Origin: Trichoderma breve
Taxonomy: Eukaryota > Ascomycota > Sordariomycetes > Hypocreales > Hypocreaceae
Direction: 5' to 3'
DNA length: 64,000 bases
NCBI RefSeq assembly: GCF_028502605.1
Contig: NC_079232.1
Span: forward strand, 434,001 to 498,000
How positions within the stretch are numbered: position 1 is the stretch's first letter; every line of letters begins with the position of its first letter. Below, in pieces: positions 37,039 through 44,080 of the stretch. A program made the translations under genes and the position numbers. The notes under the pieces are model-generated. The model saw only the letters and a list, made by a program, of their open reading frames with translations. It was not told the origin of the DNA and searched no databases.

Positions 37039-38216
37039 ATGAATACTGTCGACTCTTATAAAATCGGGTGGATTGCTGCTCTTCCCATCGACCGTGCCGC
37101 AGCCATAGCTGTGCTCCATGAGCGCCATGAAGCACCCGAAGAATTCGAGCAACACCCGTTCGACACAAACTCATACATTTGGGGCCAGATAGACAGGCAT
37201 AACGTCGTCATAGCTTCACTTCCTGCCGGTGTCCCCGGAACTCGTTCTGCAGCGGTTACGGTAGCAAAGTTCCTCTCATCTTTACCTCATATTAAGATCG
37301 GCCTGTTGGTGGGCATCGGGGCGGGTGTCGCTCGACCTGATCAAGGTCAGGATATCCGCCTCGGTGATGTCGTTGTCAGCCAGCCTCAAGGACGAACGGG
37401 AGGCGTCATCCAATATGACCTTGGAAAGGCCAAAACAGGACAGGTATGGGAACCCAAAGGCATTTTGAACACACCTCCCTTGGTCCTCCTTCAAGCGGTG
37501 GCGGCTCTACAGGCAGAGCATGAGGTCAGTTCACCAAGGATTCCAACCACTCTCAAAGAGATGTACATAAACAATGCACAGTTATGGGCGATCACTCCTC
37601 TAGTACACCGGCCCTCAACTCAAGGCTCAAAGTATATGCACCAAGGATTTGAGAATGATCGGCTCTTCAAAGCAACATTTGAACATGTTGAGGGTGATAC
37701 ATGCGCCAATTGCGATCCAGCCTATGAGATTAAGCGTGCAGCACGCGGTGCCGAAGACCCATGGGTTCATTACGGCATAATTGCTTCTGGAGACACCATA
37801 ATTGAGGACGCCGCCACTCGAGACAAAATTCTAAGTGACGTCGGAGAAGACATTCTTTGCTTTGATACAGTAGCGGCTGGCGTAATGCATAGCTTCCCTT
37901 GTCTCGTCATCAAAGGGATAAGCGACTACGCAGACTCTCACAAGAATGATCAATGGCAACGATATGCAGCTGCAACAGCAGCCGCGTATGCAAAGGAGCT
38001 TCTTGGCTGGATTCCTGGAGGACAGCACCCAAAAATGGGATCAATCGATGAAATTTCACTGCGTTAGTTTTCTCATAATCGGGTACTTACTTGATGGCAT
38101 CCAAGAACTCACCTGCTTATGTAGCAGATCATGTCCCTCCCGAAACCAACAGGCATGTATCTCGTGTTTTTGAGGATCATAAATCTAGCGATCAGAGTTT
38201 AGAAATGGTTGATTAA
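37039..38216 (+). CDS. Stand-alone PNP_UDP (nucleoside phosphorylase-like) protein
   Basis: Residues 6-15 (SYKIGWIAAL), then FDTNSYIWGQIDRHNVVIAS, GTRSAAVTVAKFLSS, IGLLVGIGAGVA, RLGDVVVSQP, VHYGIIASGD and FDTVAAGVMHSFPCLVIKGI with ISDYADSHKN are the standard order of the fungal PNP_UDP_1 domain found at the N-terminus of many NLR proteins. One exon would end at TAG 38067 (342 residues). A spliced model (37039-38062 joined to 38125-38216; donor GTTAGT, acceptor TATGTAG) keeps frame and adds DHVPPETNRHVSRVFEDHKS, giving 371 residues; I favour it but the donor is unusual. No NACHT or ankyrin part follows. The gene converges on the NACHT-WD40 gene 570 bases away. Likely activity: nucleoside or nucleotide glycosidic cleavage. 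Confidence 0.82.
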
Positions 38217-38784
38217 GTACCTCAACGCTCGATGAACTTTTGGTCGTCCAGTTTGGAATATCGAATCCTCACAGTCAGGAGGGTAGACCTACTTTATAGG
38301 CGGATCTTTATTTTTCCAACTTGCTACATTTACTTGGGGTACAGCTCTGAAGTGGTCCTTCGCTCGTGACCAAACTACATAGACACCAAGGGACACCGCT
38401 TGTGTGTATCTTACATCCCGCTTATTTCCCACTTAGGCACTTGGCGGATGCGATCAATACCAACAGGAAATTCAGAGTCACAGATTACGCTACAGTGAAG
38501 TTTCCTGGGTTGCTTTAGATTCCCATACCTAGCCTGTGGGGAAAGAGCTGAGAGGAGTATACAAAATATCGTGGCAGATGGATCAGCCGGGATAAATAAC
38601 CAATTCATGCATCAATTTATAATTATCTAAGTCAAAAACTATCTAAGTTAAAAACTATCTAAGTTAAAAACTATCTAAGTTAAAAACTATCTAAGTCAAA
38701 AACTATCTAAGTTAAAAACTATCTAAGTCAAAAACTATTCACTGATCAACCATAAACCTAAACCATAAATGATCAATCGTAACG
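38217..38784. other. Convergent 3' interval between PNP_UDP and NLR genes
   Basis: About 570 bases shared by the two 3' ends, containing the 16-base tandem array at 38625-38736. No gene. Confidence 0.6.
38625..38736 (-). repeat. 16-base tandem array, seven copies, in NLR 3' flank
   Basis: Seven head-to-tail copies of ATCTAAGTYAAAAACT with no other variation. The single variable base (C or T) runs C,T,T,T,C,T,C. It begins 49 bases after the NLR stop codon, so it probably lies in that transcript's 3' UTR. Near-identity points to recent expansion or ongoing turnover. Confidence 0.92.
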
Positions 38785-41700
38785 TCAAATCTCAGTATCA
38801 TCTCCCTCAAAGTTCAACAGCGTCACATGGCCCGACTTATATCCCATTGCAATTCTTTTCCCGCGAATCCAAAGCATCCGTATACCGTGCCAGTGAGACG
38901 GGAAATAACTGGATGGAAACTTGACCAATGGCTTACCCTTCCAACTAATCTCAAGTTCCCACCCATTTAATGTACATGATTCTGATTGCGGACCCGATGA
39001 CGTGTTCACCTTGTCCGTCCAGTAGCCATCCTCATATCGTATCGACTTCGATGTTGCAACCTTCGTTTCAAACACATAGCCGATGAAAAAGCGTCCAAGT
39101 TCTGTAAAAATATATTCCGGTTTCCTTGCGTCCCATCTTAGAGACTGAAATATCATCGGCACATATCTAATCAATATTAGGAATTTTTTGGATTCTATAC
39201 TCCAGATACTCAAATGCCTATCTCCAGACGCAATAATGAAATTGGCGTCCTGTGAGAAGAAGATGCGCTCAGAAAGGGAGAGGCAGTTATTAAAAGCATC
39301 CTTTGCAGAATGCAGTTGTTGAGAGTGTTGAGAGGCATCTAGTGAACCATCTGGCTTCACGTTCCAGATTTGAACGGCAGCACCACCTCTCACGCTGCAA
39401 GCTAATTGTGTTCCGTCTGGTGAAAACGCCATGCATGCTCGGATGACACCTTTCCTGTCGAATCCGTTCGAGCACTCGAACTCGGCCTGAATCTGATGTG
39501 CCGGTTTCGTTTCTGCAATATCATACTCGTTTAATAGATCCCAAATTCCAATAGTTCCGTCGTGTGACGCTGACGCCATGTGCCTCCCATCCGGAGAGAA
39601 TTCGACGCATAATACCTTGTCTCGATGGCCGATAAGTTTTCGTCTCAGAAGCCAATTTCCTGTATTCCAAATGGCCATCACACCATCGGCAGAAGAAGTG
39701 ACTAGGCTCTGGTCGTCCGGCGAGATCAAGTGTAATTCACAGCCCTTGCTCTCAATGGAAATCCTATAATCTCCTGTTTTCCCATCCCAAATACATATTT
39801 TTCCATCGCGATCTGCAGTAGCAAAAAACTCTCCGTTATGTGAGAACCTTAAGCATTGAATAGCACAGGTATGCCTGTCTATTTGAGTAACAGAGCCTTT
39901 CACTTCGTGCCGAAAGGCGCAAGTATCCCAAATCCGGATCAGGCCGCCGGTCAATACTGACGCCAGACTGAGATCCTTTGGTGAAAATACTACTGATTCA
40001 ACGTGTTTCGAGTCTTCGAAGTGCTCAATTCTTCTCATATTTAATCCCTGAGGATCCGGGCCCATATTCTCAAAGTCCCAGATTTCGATAGCATCCTTGT
40101 ACCCTGATGCCAGCTTCGTCTCATCAAATGAGAAAGAGATGGATCTAATGCCAGGGTTATGACTATTCAGGGTATATAATTCCAATCCCGAGTTTGGGTC
40201 CCATAATCGTATAAAACTCTCATTCTGTGATGCAGATGCCAACCACTGATGTTTGGGTAAGAATTCCAGGCTAGTAATATGCTCTTTGTGCCCGCGAAGT
40301 ATATGAACATTCTCCGCCGTCTCTTCACGCCAGAGAGTAATAATGTTGGAGGATGGAAATGCAATTAATCCATCTCCCAAAAACTTTACACAACTAATTG
40401 TGTCTGGTGTATTGATTCGATATTTGTGCTCTTCGAAAGACGGTAAAGCCCAGGTCAAGAAAGATTTACCGTTGGTTGTGGCTAATTGCTTCCCATCTGG
40501 TGAAAATGTAAGACCCTGTAAATCTCCAAACCTGTAATATTGTCTGTCAAGGTTTTTGCGGATCGTCTTGATATGTTTGCGAGTGGGAAAGTCCCAAACA
40601 TCAATAGTATTTAAAGAAGTTAGTGCCGCCAACGCCCCCGAGACTGAGAAGGCGATGTAGAATCGATTGAAGCCATCAGGAGCCCGAGTCTGGAGCTGAT
40701 CAGTCTTTGTACCATTATGGATATCCCATACGGATATTGTTTTGTCGGATTTCGAATATGAGGCGAGAAAACGGCCATCTGGGGAGTAGGCGCAGGTGAG
40801 GACCTGGGACTGAGGATGGAGGTTCAGAGCTATGTCTTTCATCTTGTATTCCGTCGCTGGCTTATTCAACAGCCGCGGAAAGTTTTTCTTGAGTAACTTC
40901 AATCTGAAGTCTTCATATGGGTAGAATAAAAGACTATCCTTTAGGCTGACGTTGCCCATGTCGTAACTGAAACGAAGGAACCGCACGGCGTCCATTACAT
41001 CGGCGATAATGCAATCATGAGGAATGTCTTGCTCAACTTGTTTACTTTCACATCCCTAATATTTTTCTGTTAGAAGATTCTGATTGCGCACCATCCCTCC
41101 AACCGAAAGAGATCAGGGGAGTAGTTGATTAATTTTGAAGAAGGTGCTTGGAGGCCCTGACTAGGCCGGGGGTTATAACTCACTGTGAGGAAATTCCTAA
41201 GCTGTAGAAGATCTCTGCTAACTCCTGACACTGGGTAGCGGATCTGCTTTATTATATCGAGCCACTGAGTGAAGCCAAGGCTCAACACGTCCGTTAGTGC
41301 CCCGAGACCTGTGCGCCTTGCATAAAGATCTCCAGATTTTGACTGCGATATCAAAAAGTGTTTGATCCAGTGAGAAACAGCGTAATGAATTGGAAGTTCG
41401 TCAGAAAGGTTGCCGGAAGAACTGCTTGAAGCAAAAAAGTCCAAGCATCGAAGCGCAATTTTTCCATGTATTTCCGGCTTTATCTGACCAACGTGTTTCT
41501 CCATCAGATACTTCTTAGCTAACTCATGACTGAAGCGCACAATATCATCTTGAACTTCCAACAAGAACAAGAATCGCCGCTTGATCAATATTTCCAAGTC
41601 AACAGCATCTGACAGCTGGACAAGAAGTCGGAGTTCGGAAATCGCAAGTGGTCGGCAGGCGGCTGCCAGTATAGTAACAATCTCCCCTAAATGTTTATTT

Positions 41701-43462
41701 TCTTCTGCTGTCAGCAGCAGCTGTACCTGCAGCAGGTTATTGAAGCGAACGTATAAGGCTTCAATTTTCTCTTCAACGTTCCCAGCTATGTGCATGGCAT
41801 ATATAGGGTCTTTCTTTATAATGCTGCACGCCAGAGTGATCCAGAGAAGATTTCCTTTCGATCTCTTCATCAGGGTTTTTTCAAGATCTTCCCGGGAAGG
41901 TTCTGGGATGCCAGTTTTTTTGAAAAATGTATCAACCTGCATTGAAACAAACTTCTTTGCAGCATCTTTCAATTTCTCGTTGTCACTAACGTCTGCTAGT
42001 GTATAACTAATGTCCTTGATGGCTGTGCAATTTCTGAATGATCTGATAGAAACAATCCAGTGAATCTTTGGTGATAAGTTGATAGTCGTGGAAATCAGCT
42101 TGAGCAAGTAGGACAAGTACCCACTGTACTTGTCAAACCCGTCTAATATGATATATATTGTTGTATTTTTATTGTCGTCGGAAAACTTGCCCAATGTTTT
42201 GCCTACATCGTCGAAGGAGATGTTCCCTTTGGGATCAGGCGAAAGCTGGAACCCAGCATCATTGTTCCCTTCGAGTTGCTCCCGCAGTGATGAGAGGCAA
42301 TCTTGAATTGTGTTCTTATCCTCAGAAAAATGCGTAACCACTTTATGAGGGTCTGAATGGGCGTATGATCTTCTCTTCAGAAGTAGTTTGGCGATATGTA
42401 AGAGCAGGTTTGTCTTGCCACATCCTGCTTCGCCAGTCACCAACAGCAGACGACTTTTTTCTTCAAAGCTATCGCCTAAAGCAAGCTTCCTAAGACAAGA
42501 AGACTCCCACAAATCAGGCTTAGTAGTGGCATCCCGCAAATCTTTGTGTATATTCCAGTAACCGCTCGGCAGCCTTTTTAGGCAACATGATTGTTGAAGC
42601 ATACAATGAACTTCATCGCTAAGCTGTGAGATTTTTGAAGTCACCGTTTCGCAGATATGTGGATATATATGTTGAAAAATGGAGTATTCGTTGTATAGAA
42701 TACCAGTAATCTCCAATTCGTGTATGAATGAATATAGTTGATCATCGCAACGTATACGAAGCCGTCCGCGGGGCTCAAGCTAAGTGGGCTTTAGTGCTGG
42801 CTTTTTACAGGATATGTCCTTGAGAGAATCGGTATTACTTACAGGTCTCATGGTTTTTGCAAAATGCAAACGTTTCTTGGATTCATCTTTCACCTCTCTC
42901 GTCACTCTGAGTCTTGTCGCAATACGTAAGAAAGTGTCCTGATGCTGCTTTGGTATCAGCAGCCTTAGCTAGTTCCGTCCTCATTACATATTAAGAATCT
43001 ATAACTTACATCATCATCTAAGGCATCTCTTAACAGTTTAGCCTTTTCATAGGCCCAGGCTTCCCAGGCTTCTTGCAGTCGTTCAAAGTCACAGAAAGAG
43101 ACAATATAGCCAACCAGATCGCGCAACGAATCGTGAAGAGGATTCTCGAGATAGTATCCAGGGACAGATGCCACCAATTTATTTTCCAGCGTGCTGAAGG
43201 CCGTTAAACAATCGCGGATGATACGTCTTTCATCTTCAGAGCTAGAGCGTTGACAGCGGAGGTGTCGGCAGAAAGCGTCTGAAAGGACATAAAGGTTATT
43301 CACCAAAAGAGATACTTCCCGCAATGGATCCTCTAGGGAGTATGGTACTTCTGGCAATGGATTATTGAGGGAATGTGTTCTTTTCCCCAATGGATCCTCA
43401 TATGGTGGGGGGTCCATAATGTATGTAGACTTGTAAGATGCAAGTTTTTCGGAGTTTGACAT
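38785..43462 (-). CDS. NACHT-WD40 NLR (STAND NTPase)
   Basis: Exons 43462-43010, 42944-42843, 42779-41184 and 41055-38785 give 1473 residues; all junctions are in phase. Residues 1-250 form a mostly helical N-terminal region I cannot assign (not HET, Goodbye, patatin or PNP_UDP as far as I can see). NACHT: Walker A GEAGCGKT at 301-308, Walker B IYIILDGFD at 393-401, sensor-like WIVSIRSF, then a winged-helix-type region to about 700. The MDAVRFLRFSYD linker that precedes WD40 in HET-E/HET-D-like proteins is at 738. Then about 11 WD40 repeats (790-1350), each with a WD/WN end such as SVWDI, RLWDP, GIWDL, and a non-repeat tail. Exon 4 opens at ATTAG|GGATGTG after a CTAAC branch site. Fungal NLRs act in heterokaryon incompatibility and defence. 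M16 (43417) is another possible start. Confidence 0.88.
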
Positions 43463-43502: not shown

Positions 43503-43552
43503 AACCCTAACCTACAAAACTGCAAGTTCCTGCGATATACAGATGAAACGAC

Positions 43553-44080
43553 GCCATGTTTGAACAAAGGAGCCTGTTGTAAGCTGGCTGGCGGAATACT
43601 AGTGTTCACATTGCGGCTTCTTTGTTTGAGTGGATCGATTTACCTTGATGAGTTCTGACTTGATAAAGAAACTTGATAGGTGTCTATTAGTTGACTTATT
43701 TGAGTGGTACAAGCTTGCAAGTTAGGTAGTCAATGTTGTCAAACTTGAGGACAAAGGAGCCTGTTGCCTGTTCACGTCTGCTTTGATAAGTCCACACCAC
43801 GTACTTGAGACCAAAGAAACGGAACAGCTACGCTGAGCCATGTCCCCTGTTGAGTTGACTGATTGGCTTGAGTGAACAGGCATCCTTGTTAGTCGAAGTT
43901 ATCAAACTTGGACAAAAGAGCCTGTTGTCCGTTCACAGACGATTGCTCACAGACGAGAGTTCAGAGTTATATTGCCTCTACTTTGTTTGACTGAACCGTC
44001 TGCTTTGATAAGTCCAAACTCCGTAATTCAGACCAAAGAAACGAACCAGCCACGTTGAACCATGTCCTCTATTGGATTAC
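43553..44080 (-). repeat. Imperfect direct repeats upstream of the NLR
   Basis: Two main copies, about 43732-43860 and 43893-44080, share GACAAARGAGCCTGTTG, GTCTGCTTTGATAAGTCCA, GACCAAAGAAACG and TTGAACCATGTCC-like segments in the same order. Offsets are 161 bases at the left and 222 at the right, because the second copy has about 60 extra bases with short CACAGACGA repeats. A third fragment, AACAAAGGAGCCTGTTGTAA, is at 43562-43581. Copies are perhaps 75-80 percent alike. Confidence 0.75.

What the first reader, a model, noticed from the sequence alone, without database searches (positions are those of the whole stretch)
37039..43462. Convergent PNP_UDP gene and NACHT-WD40 NLR: candidate split receptor/effector pair
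A stand-alone PNP_UDP gene and a 1473-residue NACHT-WD40 NLR lie tail-to-tail, 570 bases apart. PNP_UDP is normally fused to the N-terminus of fungal NLRs (established). Here the domain is separate and the NLR has an unassigned N-terminus. Known fungal clusters pair an NLR with a separate effector (NWD2 with HET-S), but I know of no described PNP_UDP/NACHT-WD40 pair. Related bacterial PNP-fold effectors destroy nucleotides during phage defence, so nucleotide depletion on activation is a plausible mechanism. The functional link is inference.
Basis: partly seen in the sequence, partly recalled or inferred. Interest (0 to 1): 0.78.

Follow-up and report, generated by a model that had tools for sequence, protein, structure and literature searches.

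The report
Inactive-looking enzyme beside fungal immune receptor
In the soil fungus Trichoderma, a small enzyme-like protein that seems to have lost part of its active site sits tail-to-tail with an immune-receptor gene; a similar pairing with another receptor type is recorded in a related species, which suggests the small protein is a non-enzymatic partner rather than a weapon.

Summary
The window is taken to be Trichoderma breve. It holds a stand-alone PNP_UDP gene (37039 to 38067 or 38216, +) and an open, four-exon NACHT-WD40 NLR (43462-38785, -, 1473 aa) whose first 294 residues match no Pfam family. The kind is not new: stand-alone PNP_UDP genes beside NLRs were published in 2012 and 2022, and this genome holds a pair of the published amyloid-linked type on C3.

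Three things differ here. (1) The window pair shares no sequence motif, by a test that finds the C3 pair. (2) All six members of the PNP orthologue group have lost the family's E-M-E motif (ribose-binding in MTA/SAH nucleosidases); it makes up three of the four clade-wide changes at 130 conserved positions. Nucleotide destruction is therefore unlikely, though untested. (3) Linkage recurs with a different NLR type: T. aggressivum PNP (86%) and a 40%-identical NLR relative carry consecutive locus tags (Triagg1_1716/1717); in T. velutinum both lie on contigs of equal length.

Best reading: a conserved linked unit in which a non-catalytic PNP is the partner (guarded protein, decoy or regulator) of a changing NLR slot. 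Function is inference.

The parts
37039..38062 (+). Stand-alone PNP_UDP gene, exon 1 (if unspliced the frame ends at TAG 38065-38067, 342 aa)
   Evidence: Open frame; PF01048 31.5 bits over cut-off 25.1; orthologues at 95, 86, 85, 70 and 66% identity
38063..38124 (+). Probable 62-base intron (GTTAGT ... ATGTAG)
   Evidence: Splicing gives a C-terminus homologous to T. velutinum P0002; annotated T. aggressivum P0003 ends unspliced, so the 3' end is uncertain
38125..38216 (+). Probable second PNP exon, short C-terminal tail ending SLEMVD
   Evidence: T. velutinum P0002 also ends SLEMVD
37090..37092 (+). Codon 18, Asp in place of Glu (Glu in 115 of 115 other relatives; aligned with the catalytic Glu of MTA/SAH nucleosidases)
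   Evidence: (weak N-terminal match); Asp in T. breve and P0001, Glu in P0002-P0005
37864..37872 (+). Codons 276-278, Asp-Thr-Val in place of the family's Glu-Met-Glu (ribose-binding motif)
   Evidence: Profile alignment to MTA/SAH nucleosidase 1zos; lost in all six orthologues; codons checked
37924..37926 (+). Codon 296, Asp aligned with the purine-protonating Asp; kept
   Evidence: (Asp in 113 of 115 other relatives)
38624..38738 (.). 16-bp tandem repeat, 7.2 copies, in the gap between the two 3' ends
38785..41055 (-). NLR exon 4: WD40 region and stop
   Evidence: WD40 1.7e-54
41184..42779 (-). NLR exon 3: pre-NACHT linker, NACHT/NPHP3_N NTPase and following region
   Evidence: N-terminal part homologous to T. 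velutinum P0126
42411..42434 (-). Walker A codons GEAGCGKT, intact
   Evidence: Translated
42843..42944 (-). NLR exon 2 (acceptor 42945; 42939 and 42969 also keep frame)
   Evidence: junction DDDHQDTF as in annotated P0122 and P0123
43010..43462 (-). NLR exon 1: Pro-rich imperfect repeats, then a region predicted helical with low confidence, without Pfam match
   Evidence: mean pLDDT 54

Best explanation
The two genes form a conserved, genetically linked immune or allorecognition unit in Trichoderma. The NLR is the receptor: WD40 repeats sense, the NACHT oligomerises. The small protein belongs to the PNP_UDP family but has lost the ribose-binding Glu-Met-Glu motif throughout its orthologue group. 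It therefore most likely acts as a non-catalytic partner, either a guarded protein or decoy whose state the NLR reads or a regulator bound by it, not as a nucleotide-destroying executioner. The locus keeps the PNP and changes the NLR: type A in T. breve, type C in T. aggressivum, perhaps a fourth lineage in T. velutinum. Shown: both genes, motif loss, no shared motif, adjacency in T. breve. Read from locus tags: adjacency in T. aggressivum. Inferred: the guard/decoy function, the receptor steps (from what is known of the family), and adjacency in T. velutinum.
For: Adjacency in T. breve DNA. T. aggressivum: PNP orthologue Triagg1_1716 and NLR relative Triagg1_1717, contig length 1,153,190 for both. 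T. velutinum: PNP (85%) and NLR (41%) both on contigs of 3,403,378 bases. In T. breve each is the only close member of its family: searches with NLR types B and C at E<=1e-10 find the window NLR best (42-47% pieces), then rows of at most 33% (type B) and short pieces of at most 42% (type C); the PNP sister clade's best match is the window PNP at 61%, next 54-58%. Of 130 positions conserved at >=93% in 115 other relatives, 4 are changed in all six orthologues, and 3 of those are the contiguous E-M-E; the relatives change a median of 2 conserved positions (maximum 10), the window 13. No shared stretch between PNP C-terminus and NLR N-terminus (794 of 1000 shuffles as good), while the C3 pair in this genome scores 85 with 0 of 1000. 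NLR tree: types A, B and C are each a clade with support 0.997-1.0.
Against: No contact, expression or activity data. Adjacency in T. aggressivum rests on locus-tag numbers and equal contig lengths; no fungal DNA but T. breve could be read. Triagg1_1717 and Trihar35433_2274 are annotated without a NACHT, so the receptors there may be broken or mis-annotated. A sister-clade PNP with an intact E-M-E (P0023, 60%) and a type-A NLR (P0166, 67%) are both on Logan contigs of 31,900 bases, so motif loss is not a condition of linkage. None of the 120 PNP rows shown bears the name or contig length of the other type-A genomes; T. breve's own gene is missing there too and many rows are unnamed, so this says little. 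The window PNP also differs at 13 conserved positions, more than any of the 115 relatives, which fits general relaxation as well as a new role. Changed residues at the ribose site do not prove loss of activity.
Confidence: 0.45

Rival explanations
1. Split receptor/effector pair: on activation the NLR switches on the PNP, which destroys nucleotides or ATP and kills the cell.
For: Stand-alone PNP_UDP genes beside NLRs are published as candidate effector pairs, and PNP domains of bacterial defence degrade (d)ATP (table entry in PMC10952713 citing Rousset 2023). The Asp aligned with the purine-protonating Asp is kept. An intact sister-clade PNP may be linked to a type-A NLR.
Against: E-M-E lost in all six orthologues, and codon 18 also changed in T. 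breve; no shared motif although the test works on the C3 pair.
Confidence: 0.2
2. Brake: the inactive PNP co-assembles with the PNP domains of active NLRs elsewhere in the genome and blocks them; the neighbouring NLR removes or redirects the brake.
For: The genome has 39 PNP loci followed by a NACHT and 3 adjoining NB-ARC; a lost motif inside an otherwise recognisable family member would suit an inhibitor. That PNP-family enzymes oligomerise is recalled.
Against: No interaction data. The nearest in-genome paralogues are 54-55% identical, which makes mixed assembly uncertain.
Confidence: 0.15
3. Linkage without function: NLRs and PNP genes gather in the same fast-changing regions and these two are neighbours by history.
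For: NLR-rich genome (at least 141 NACHT-like loci); excess of unfused PNP near NLRs only 8 against 3.1; the other near pairs have mixed orientations, and the C3 pair has other open frames between. T. harzianum 35433 has two NLRs of this family with tags 2274 and 2276, so the locus may simply be an NLR cluster.
Against: In T. aggressivum the PNP orthologue and a relative of the window NLR carry consecutive locus tags although the NLR type differs, and in T. breve both families have one close member each, adjacent.
Confidence: 0.2

Closest known systems
UDP-phosphorylase/STAND and PUASM pairs (Daskalov 2012, PMC3321046; Wojciechowski 2022, PMC9815663)
   Same: Stand-alone PNP_UDP gene next to an NLR (in 2022, NACHT or NACHT-WD40) that lacks a known N-terminal effector domain
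   Different: No shared C-terminal/N-terminal motif found; PNP lacks the ribose-binding E-M-E; the NLR has a long (about 290 aa) unassigned N-terminus, not a short motif
HET-S/NWD2 of Podospora anserina
   Same: Two-gene unit of NACHT-WD40 NLR and separate small protein
   Different: Small protein is PNP_UDP, not HeLo; the shared-stretch test is negative (a HET-s motif profile was not run)
PNP_UDP-NACHT NLR fusions of fungi
   Same: Same PNP_UDP subfamily; fused relatives reach 57-60% identity to the window PNP (P0028, P0048, P0097, P0111, P0117)
   Different: Separate gene, its NLR neighbour on the opposite strand; probably its own short C-terminal exon instead of the linker and NACHT; active-site motif lost
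MTA/SAH nucleosidases (PDB 1zos and others)
   Same: Family relation by profile match (E 6.3e-06); purine-side Asp kept
   Different: Position of the ribose-binding Glu is Val; position of the catalytic Glu is Asp in T. breve
Bacterial PNP-domain defence effectors (Detocs, CBASS Cap17; Rousset 2023, not read)
   Same: Same Pfam family PF01048
   Different: Those degrade (d)ATP (as tabulated in PMC10952713); this one looks inactive

Membership tests
PNP_UDP_1 (PF01048) | Profile score over curated cut-off | tested here: met
   31.5 bits against 25.1; four of four orthologues scanned (P0002-P0005) also over it, P0004 narrowly at 25.7
PNP_UDP_1 (PF01048) | Ribose-binding Glu-Met-Glu motif of the nucleosidase branch | tested here: not met
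   Asp-Thr-Val (Asp-Gly-Val in P0005); Glu at position 278 in 109 of 115 other relatives
Fungal NACHT-WD40 NLR | NACHT/NPHP3_N with Walker A, followed by WD40 repeats | tested here: met
NLR/effector two-component pair (NWD2/HET-S type) | Effector-type gene adjacent to an NLR without annotated effector domain | tested here: met
NLR/effector two-component pair (NWD2/HET-S type) | Amyloid motif shared by effector C-terminus and NLR N-terminus (PUASM, HET-s, sigma, PP) | tested here: not met
   No PUASM pattern in six relatives nor in the window ORFs of 120 aa or more (the short second PNP exon only by eye). No shared stretch: 414 and 391 of 500 shuffles as good, 794 of 1000; C3 control 0 of 1000. 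HET-s, sigma and PP motifs were tested only through the shared-stretch test
NLR/effector two-component pair (NWD2/HET-S type) | Linkage conserved in other species | tested here: inconclusive
   Consecutive tags in T. aggressivum, equal contig length in T. velutinum; no DNA of other species could be read
Guard/decoy pair | NLR activation depends on the state of the partner protein | not testable with these tools
   Needs genetics or biochemistry

The most novel reading that the evidence does not exclude
A fungal guard or decoy locus: a PNP_UDP pseudo-enzyme, related to the domain that dozens of NLRs in the same genome carry as effector, is kept as the bait of an exchangeable NLR slot, so that interference with PNP effectors is sensed. 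This would be a fungal counterpart of plant pseudokinase decoys (recalled) outside the amyloid-signalling scheme.
Probability: 0.22. Interest if true: 0.8.

Novelty: new variant of a known kind. Interest (0 to 1): 0.52.

Why it matters
Stand-alone PNP_UDP/NLR pairs are read as receptor and executioner joined by an amyloid motif. This pair keeps the genomic arrangement but shows neither the shared motif nor, in its orthologue group, the ribose-binding residues of the enzyme, and the NLR type recorded beside the PNP differs between species. If confirmed, a separate effector-like protein beside an NLR may be what is sensed or what restrains, rather than what kills. The same genome offers a ready control, the amyloid-linked PNP/NLR pair on C3.

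Tried and rejected
Broken fragment of a longer NLR: rejected. tblastn with seven relatives, five of them annotated with NPHP3_N (PF24883), found the PNP frame and no credible NACHT piece downstream (best other hit E 0.014, on the other strand).

Amyloid-type pair: not supported by the PUASM pattern or the shared-stretch tests. The one positive control is the C3 pair. It fits the published pattern FxGxGxQxxGxGxF except that the last residue is Leu, and was found with the looser core GxGxQxxGxG; that scan gave three hits, the third in a long unrelated open frame on C7.

Structure: AlphaFold2 of the PNP with a 25-sequence alignment was poor (mean pLDDT 42) and of NLR exon 1 low (54); no fold search was run on them. 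phmmer of the PNP against the PDB gave nothing at E<=0.01; the profile gave MTA/SAH nucleosidases.

Literature: five searches. For this locus: 'Trichoderma / NOD-like receptor / NACHT / WD40 / nucleoside phosphorylase / gene cluster' (12 of 31 papers listed) and 'pseudoenzyme / fungal / NLR / decoy / phosphorylase' (8 of 18 listed). No listed title or abstract start describes this pair. Passages were read in PMC9815663, PMC12258605, PMC4986451, PMC12881547, PMC10197012, PMC3321046 and PMC10952713, no whole text. The library lacks most subscription papers. Rousset 2023 was not read; it is cited through a table passage in PMC10952713.

Rows dropped: 13 short or weak NACHT rows were not typed into (one would add a locus; counts unchanged), and itself says further matches were not listed. 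In one search, 63 of 69 PNP loci gave sequence; five had no single fetched locus covering them and one gave no hit. The census of position 278 covers 62 other own loci, 2 with a gap. The PNP tree used 59 own loci of 280 or more residues and 120 relatives. One search lists 120 of 5712 hits, 120 of 3773.
Full report
WHAT IS THERE. The window lies on a 7,587,385-base contig of a 38.5-Mb genome. A WD protein of Trichoderma breve (P0121), 100% identical to the window's NLR over the aligned 82%, is recorded on a contig of that same length, so the source is taken as T. breve. On the plus strand, 37039-38067 encodes a 342-residue protein with PF01048 over its cut-off. On the minus strand, 43462-38785 encodes an NLR. 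I rebuilt it with three GT-AG introns (43009-42945, 42842-42780, 41183-41056); the frame is open throughout and gives 1473 residues, or 1471 or 1481 with two other in-frame acceptors for intron 1. The choice of 42945 rests on the junction DDDHQDTF in the annotated relatives P0122 and P0123. The annotated T. breve model P0121 skips part of this region; my model of it is supported by its homology to the N-terminus of the T. velutinum NLR (score 168, 0 of 100 shuffles).

THE PNP GENE END. A likely 62-base intron (38063-38124) adds a tail ending SLEMVD (371 aa in all), and the T. velutinum orthologue ends the same way. The annotated T. aggressivum protein ends unspliced. With the second exon the genes are 568 bases apart, otherwise 717.

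HOW UNUSUAL IS A STAND-ALONE PNP HERE. I merged the genome hits into 69 PNP and 141 NACHT-like loci (inputs; some are fragments; 142 with the rows I had left out). 39 PNP loci are followed by a NACHT within 3 kb on the same strand, and 3 adjoin NB-ARC. The other 27 are unfused; 8 of 27 lie within 10 kb of a NACHT, against 3.1 by local shifting (p=0.007), and 4 against 1.8 at 5 kb (p=0.11). So the neighbourhood is modestly enriched and not, by itself, proof of a unit. A pair of the published type is present: PNP C3:1780661 and NLR C3:1786286 carry HFSGTGMQHSGAGTLSVGGDVNI and IFQGSGVQHSGQGPLIVGGNVNI, the PUASM pattern but for its last residue, found in loci already held.

LINKAGE ELSEWHERE. Only protein records of other species were available. 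The PNP orthologues are P0001 (95%), P0003 T. aggressivum (86%), P0002 T. velutinum (85%), P0004 (70%) and P0005 T. ceciliae (66%); with the window protein they form one clade (support 1.0). The NLR relatives fall into types A (T. breve, T. harzianum, SZMC 28012, SZMC 28015, T. pleuroticola, one Logan contig), B and C, with T. velutinum apart; the root is uncertain, since one of the two distant sequences added fell beside type A (0.94). Triagg1_1716 is the PNP and Triagg1_1717 a type-C NLR relative (40%), both on a contig of 1,153,190 bases. T. velutinum PNP and NLR are both on a contig of 3,403,378 bases; by chance that would be roughly one in ten if the genome is about 40 Mb (recalled size). 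Trihar35433_2276 (type A) and _2274 (type B) leave one gene between them, whose identity I could not see. In T. breve neither type B nor type C was found as a separate gene: the best match of each is the window NLR. Thus, as far as the records go, the PNP is constant and the NLR type beside it is not. Against: two of these NLR models (Triagg1_1717, Trihar35433_2274) start after the NACHT, and P0123, P0124, P0125 and P0165 also lack the Walker A stretch, so decay or mis-annotation is common at this locus.

THE LOST MOTIF. A profile of 25 relatives matches MTA/SAH nucleosidases (1zos, E 6.3e-06); its N-terminal stretch, a weak match (8.3 bits), aligns codon 18 with the second glutamate of AMPEE, and its C-terminal stretch aligns the E-M-E and the Asp of the SD motif. 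That these are the catalytic, ribose-binding and purine-protonating residues is recalled knowledge of E. coli MTAN (Glu12, Glu174, Asp197). In the window protein they read Asp18, Asp-Thr-Val 276-278 and Asp296. Of 130 positions conserved in at least 93% of 115 other relatives, 13 differ in the window protein (median 2, maximum 10 among the relatives); 4 differ in all six orthologues: 252 (Asn to Asp) and 276-278. Position 278 is Glu in 109 of 115 relatives and in 55 of the 60 other own-genome loci with a letter there. The sister clade (P0006, P0013, P0014, P0015, P0023) keeps E-M-E. The loss is thus concentrated on one motif, shared by all six sequences down to 66% identity, and fits a pseudo-enzyme; activity was not tested.

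NO AMYLOID LINK FOUND. PNP C-terminus against NLR N-terminus: as good in 414 of 500 (two-exon) and 391 of 500 (one-exon) shuffles, and 794 of 1000. T. velutinum: 214 of 500. The C3 pair: 0 of 1000. The C8, C7 and C5 neighbours also show nothing (272, 413 and 992 of 1000; their N-termini were read by eye from frames). The N-terminal 294 residues of the window NLR and 182 of the T. velutinum one hit no Pfam family.

MECHANISM. Shown: two open genes, tail-to-tail; motif loss; no shared motif found. Read from tags: adjacency in T. aggressivum. Inferred: because the PNP looks inactive yet is conserved, and the NLR slot changes, I take the PNP to be a non-catalytic partner of the NLR, as guarded protein, decoy or regulator. 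The executioner reading is not excluded, because an intact sister-clade PNP (P0023) and a type-A NLR (P0166) share a Logan contig length of 31,900.

KNOWN OR NEW. The arrangement was described in 2012 (PMC3321046, passages) and 2022 (PMC9815663, passages). [quoted passage not shown] reviews PMC12881547 and PMC10197012 (passages) describe PNP_UDP as a module acting on ATP in immunity. New here, as far as the searches named in Tried and rejected show: the inactive-looking variant without a shared motif and with a changing NLR.

Noticed in passing
L011 (C3:1780661-1781761) and L011/L012 (C3:1786286-1789144): PUASM-type amyloid pair of PNP_UDP protein and NACHT NLR in the same genome, with other open frames between them; shared stretch scores 85, 0 of 1000 shuffles.
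   Followed up: yes
L015/L016 (C5:2584009-2596332): A NACHT-WD40 NLR with a PNP gene on either side; the left one is the best own-genome match of the window PNP (54%) and carries a Gly/Ser/Pro-rich tail.
   Followed up: partly
L023/L024 (C8:641436-646518): PNP gene head-to-head with a NACHT NLR that apparently has a short, Asn/His/Gly-rich N-terminus (read by eye); no shared motif found.
   Followed up: partly
L017/L018 (C7:2262291-2269575): NLR with apparent N-terminus ISGNTIGNNVTIVQGDL convergent with a PNP gene; a decayed second PNP copy lies between them.
   Followed up: partly
window 38624-38738: 16-bp tandem repeat (7.2 copies) between the 3' ends of the two genes.
   Followed up: no
window 43300-43420 (NLR codons 15-50): Pro-rich imperfect repeat whose copy number differs between NLR orthologues (T. 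breve, P0122, P0125), by eye.
   Followed up: no
window 43540-43930: Imperfect repeats of ...ACAAAGGAGCCTGTTG upstream of the NLR start, seen by eye; not reported by the tandem-repeat finder.
   Followed up: no
P0123, P0124, P0125, P0165, P0171, P0174: Annotated NLRs of this family in other Trichoderma lack the Walker A stretch or the whole NACHT: decay or mis-annotation.
   Followed up: partly
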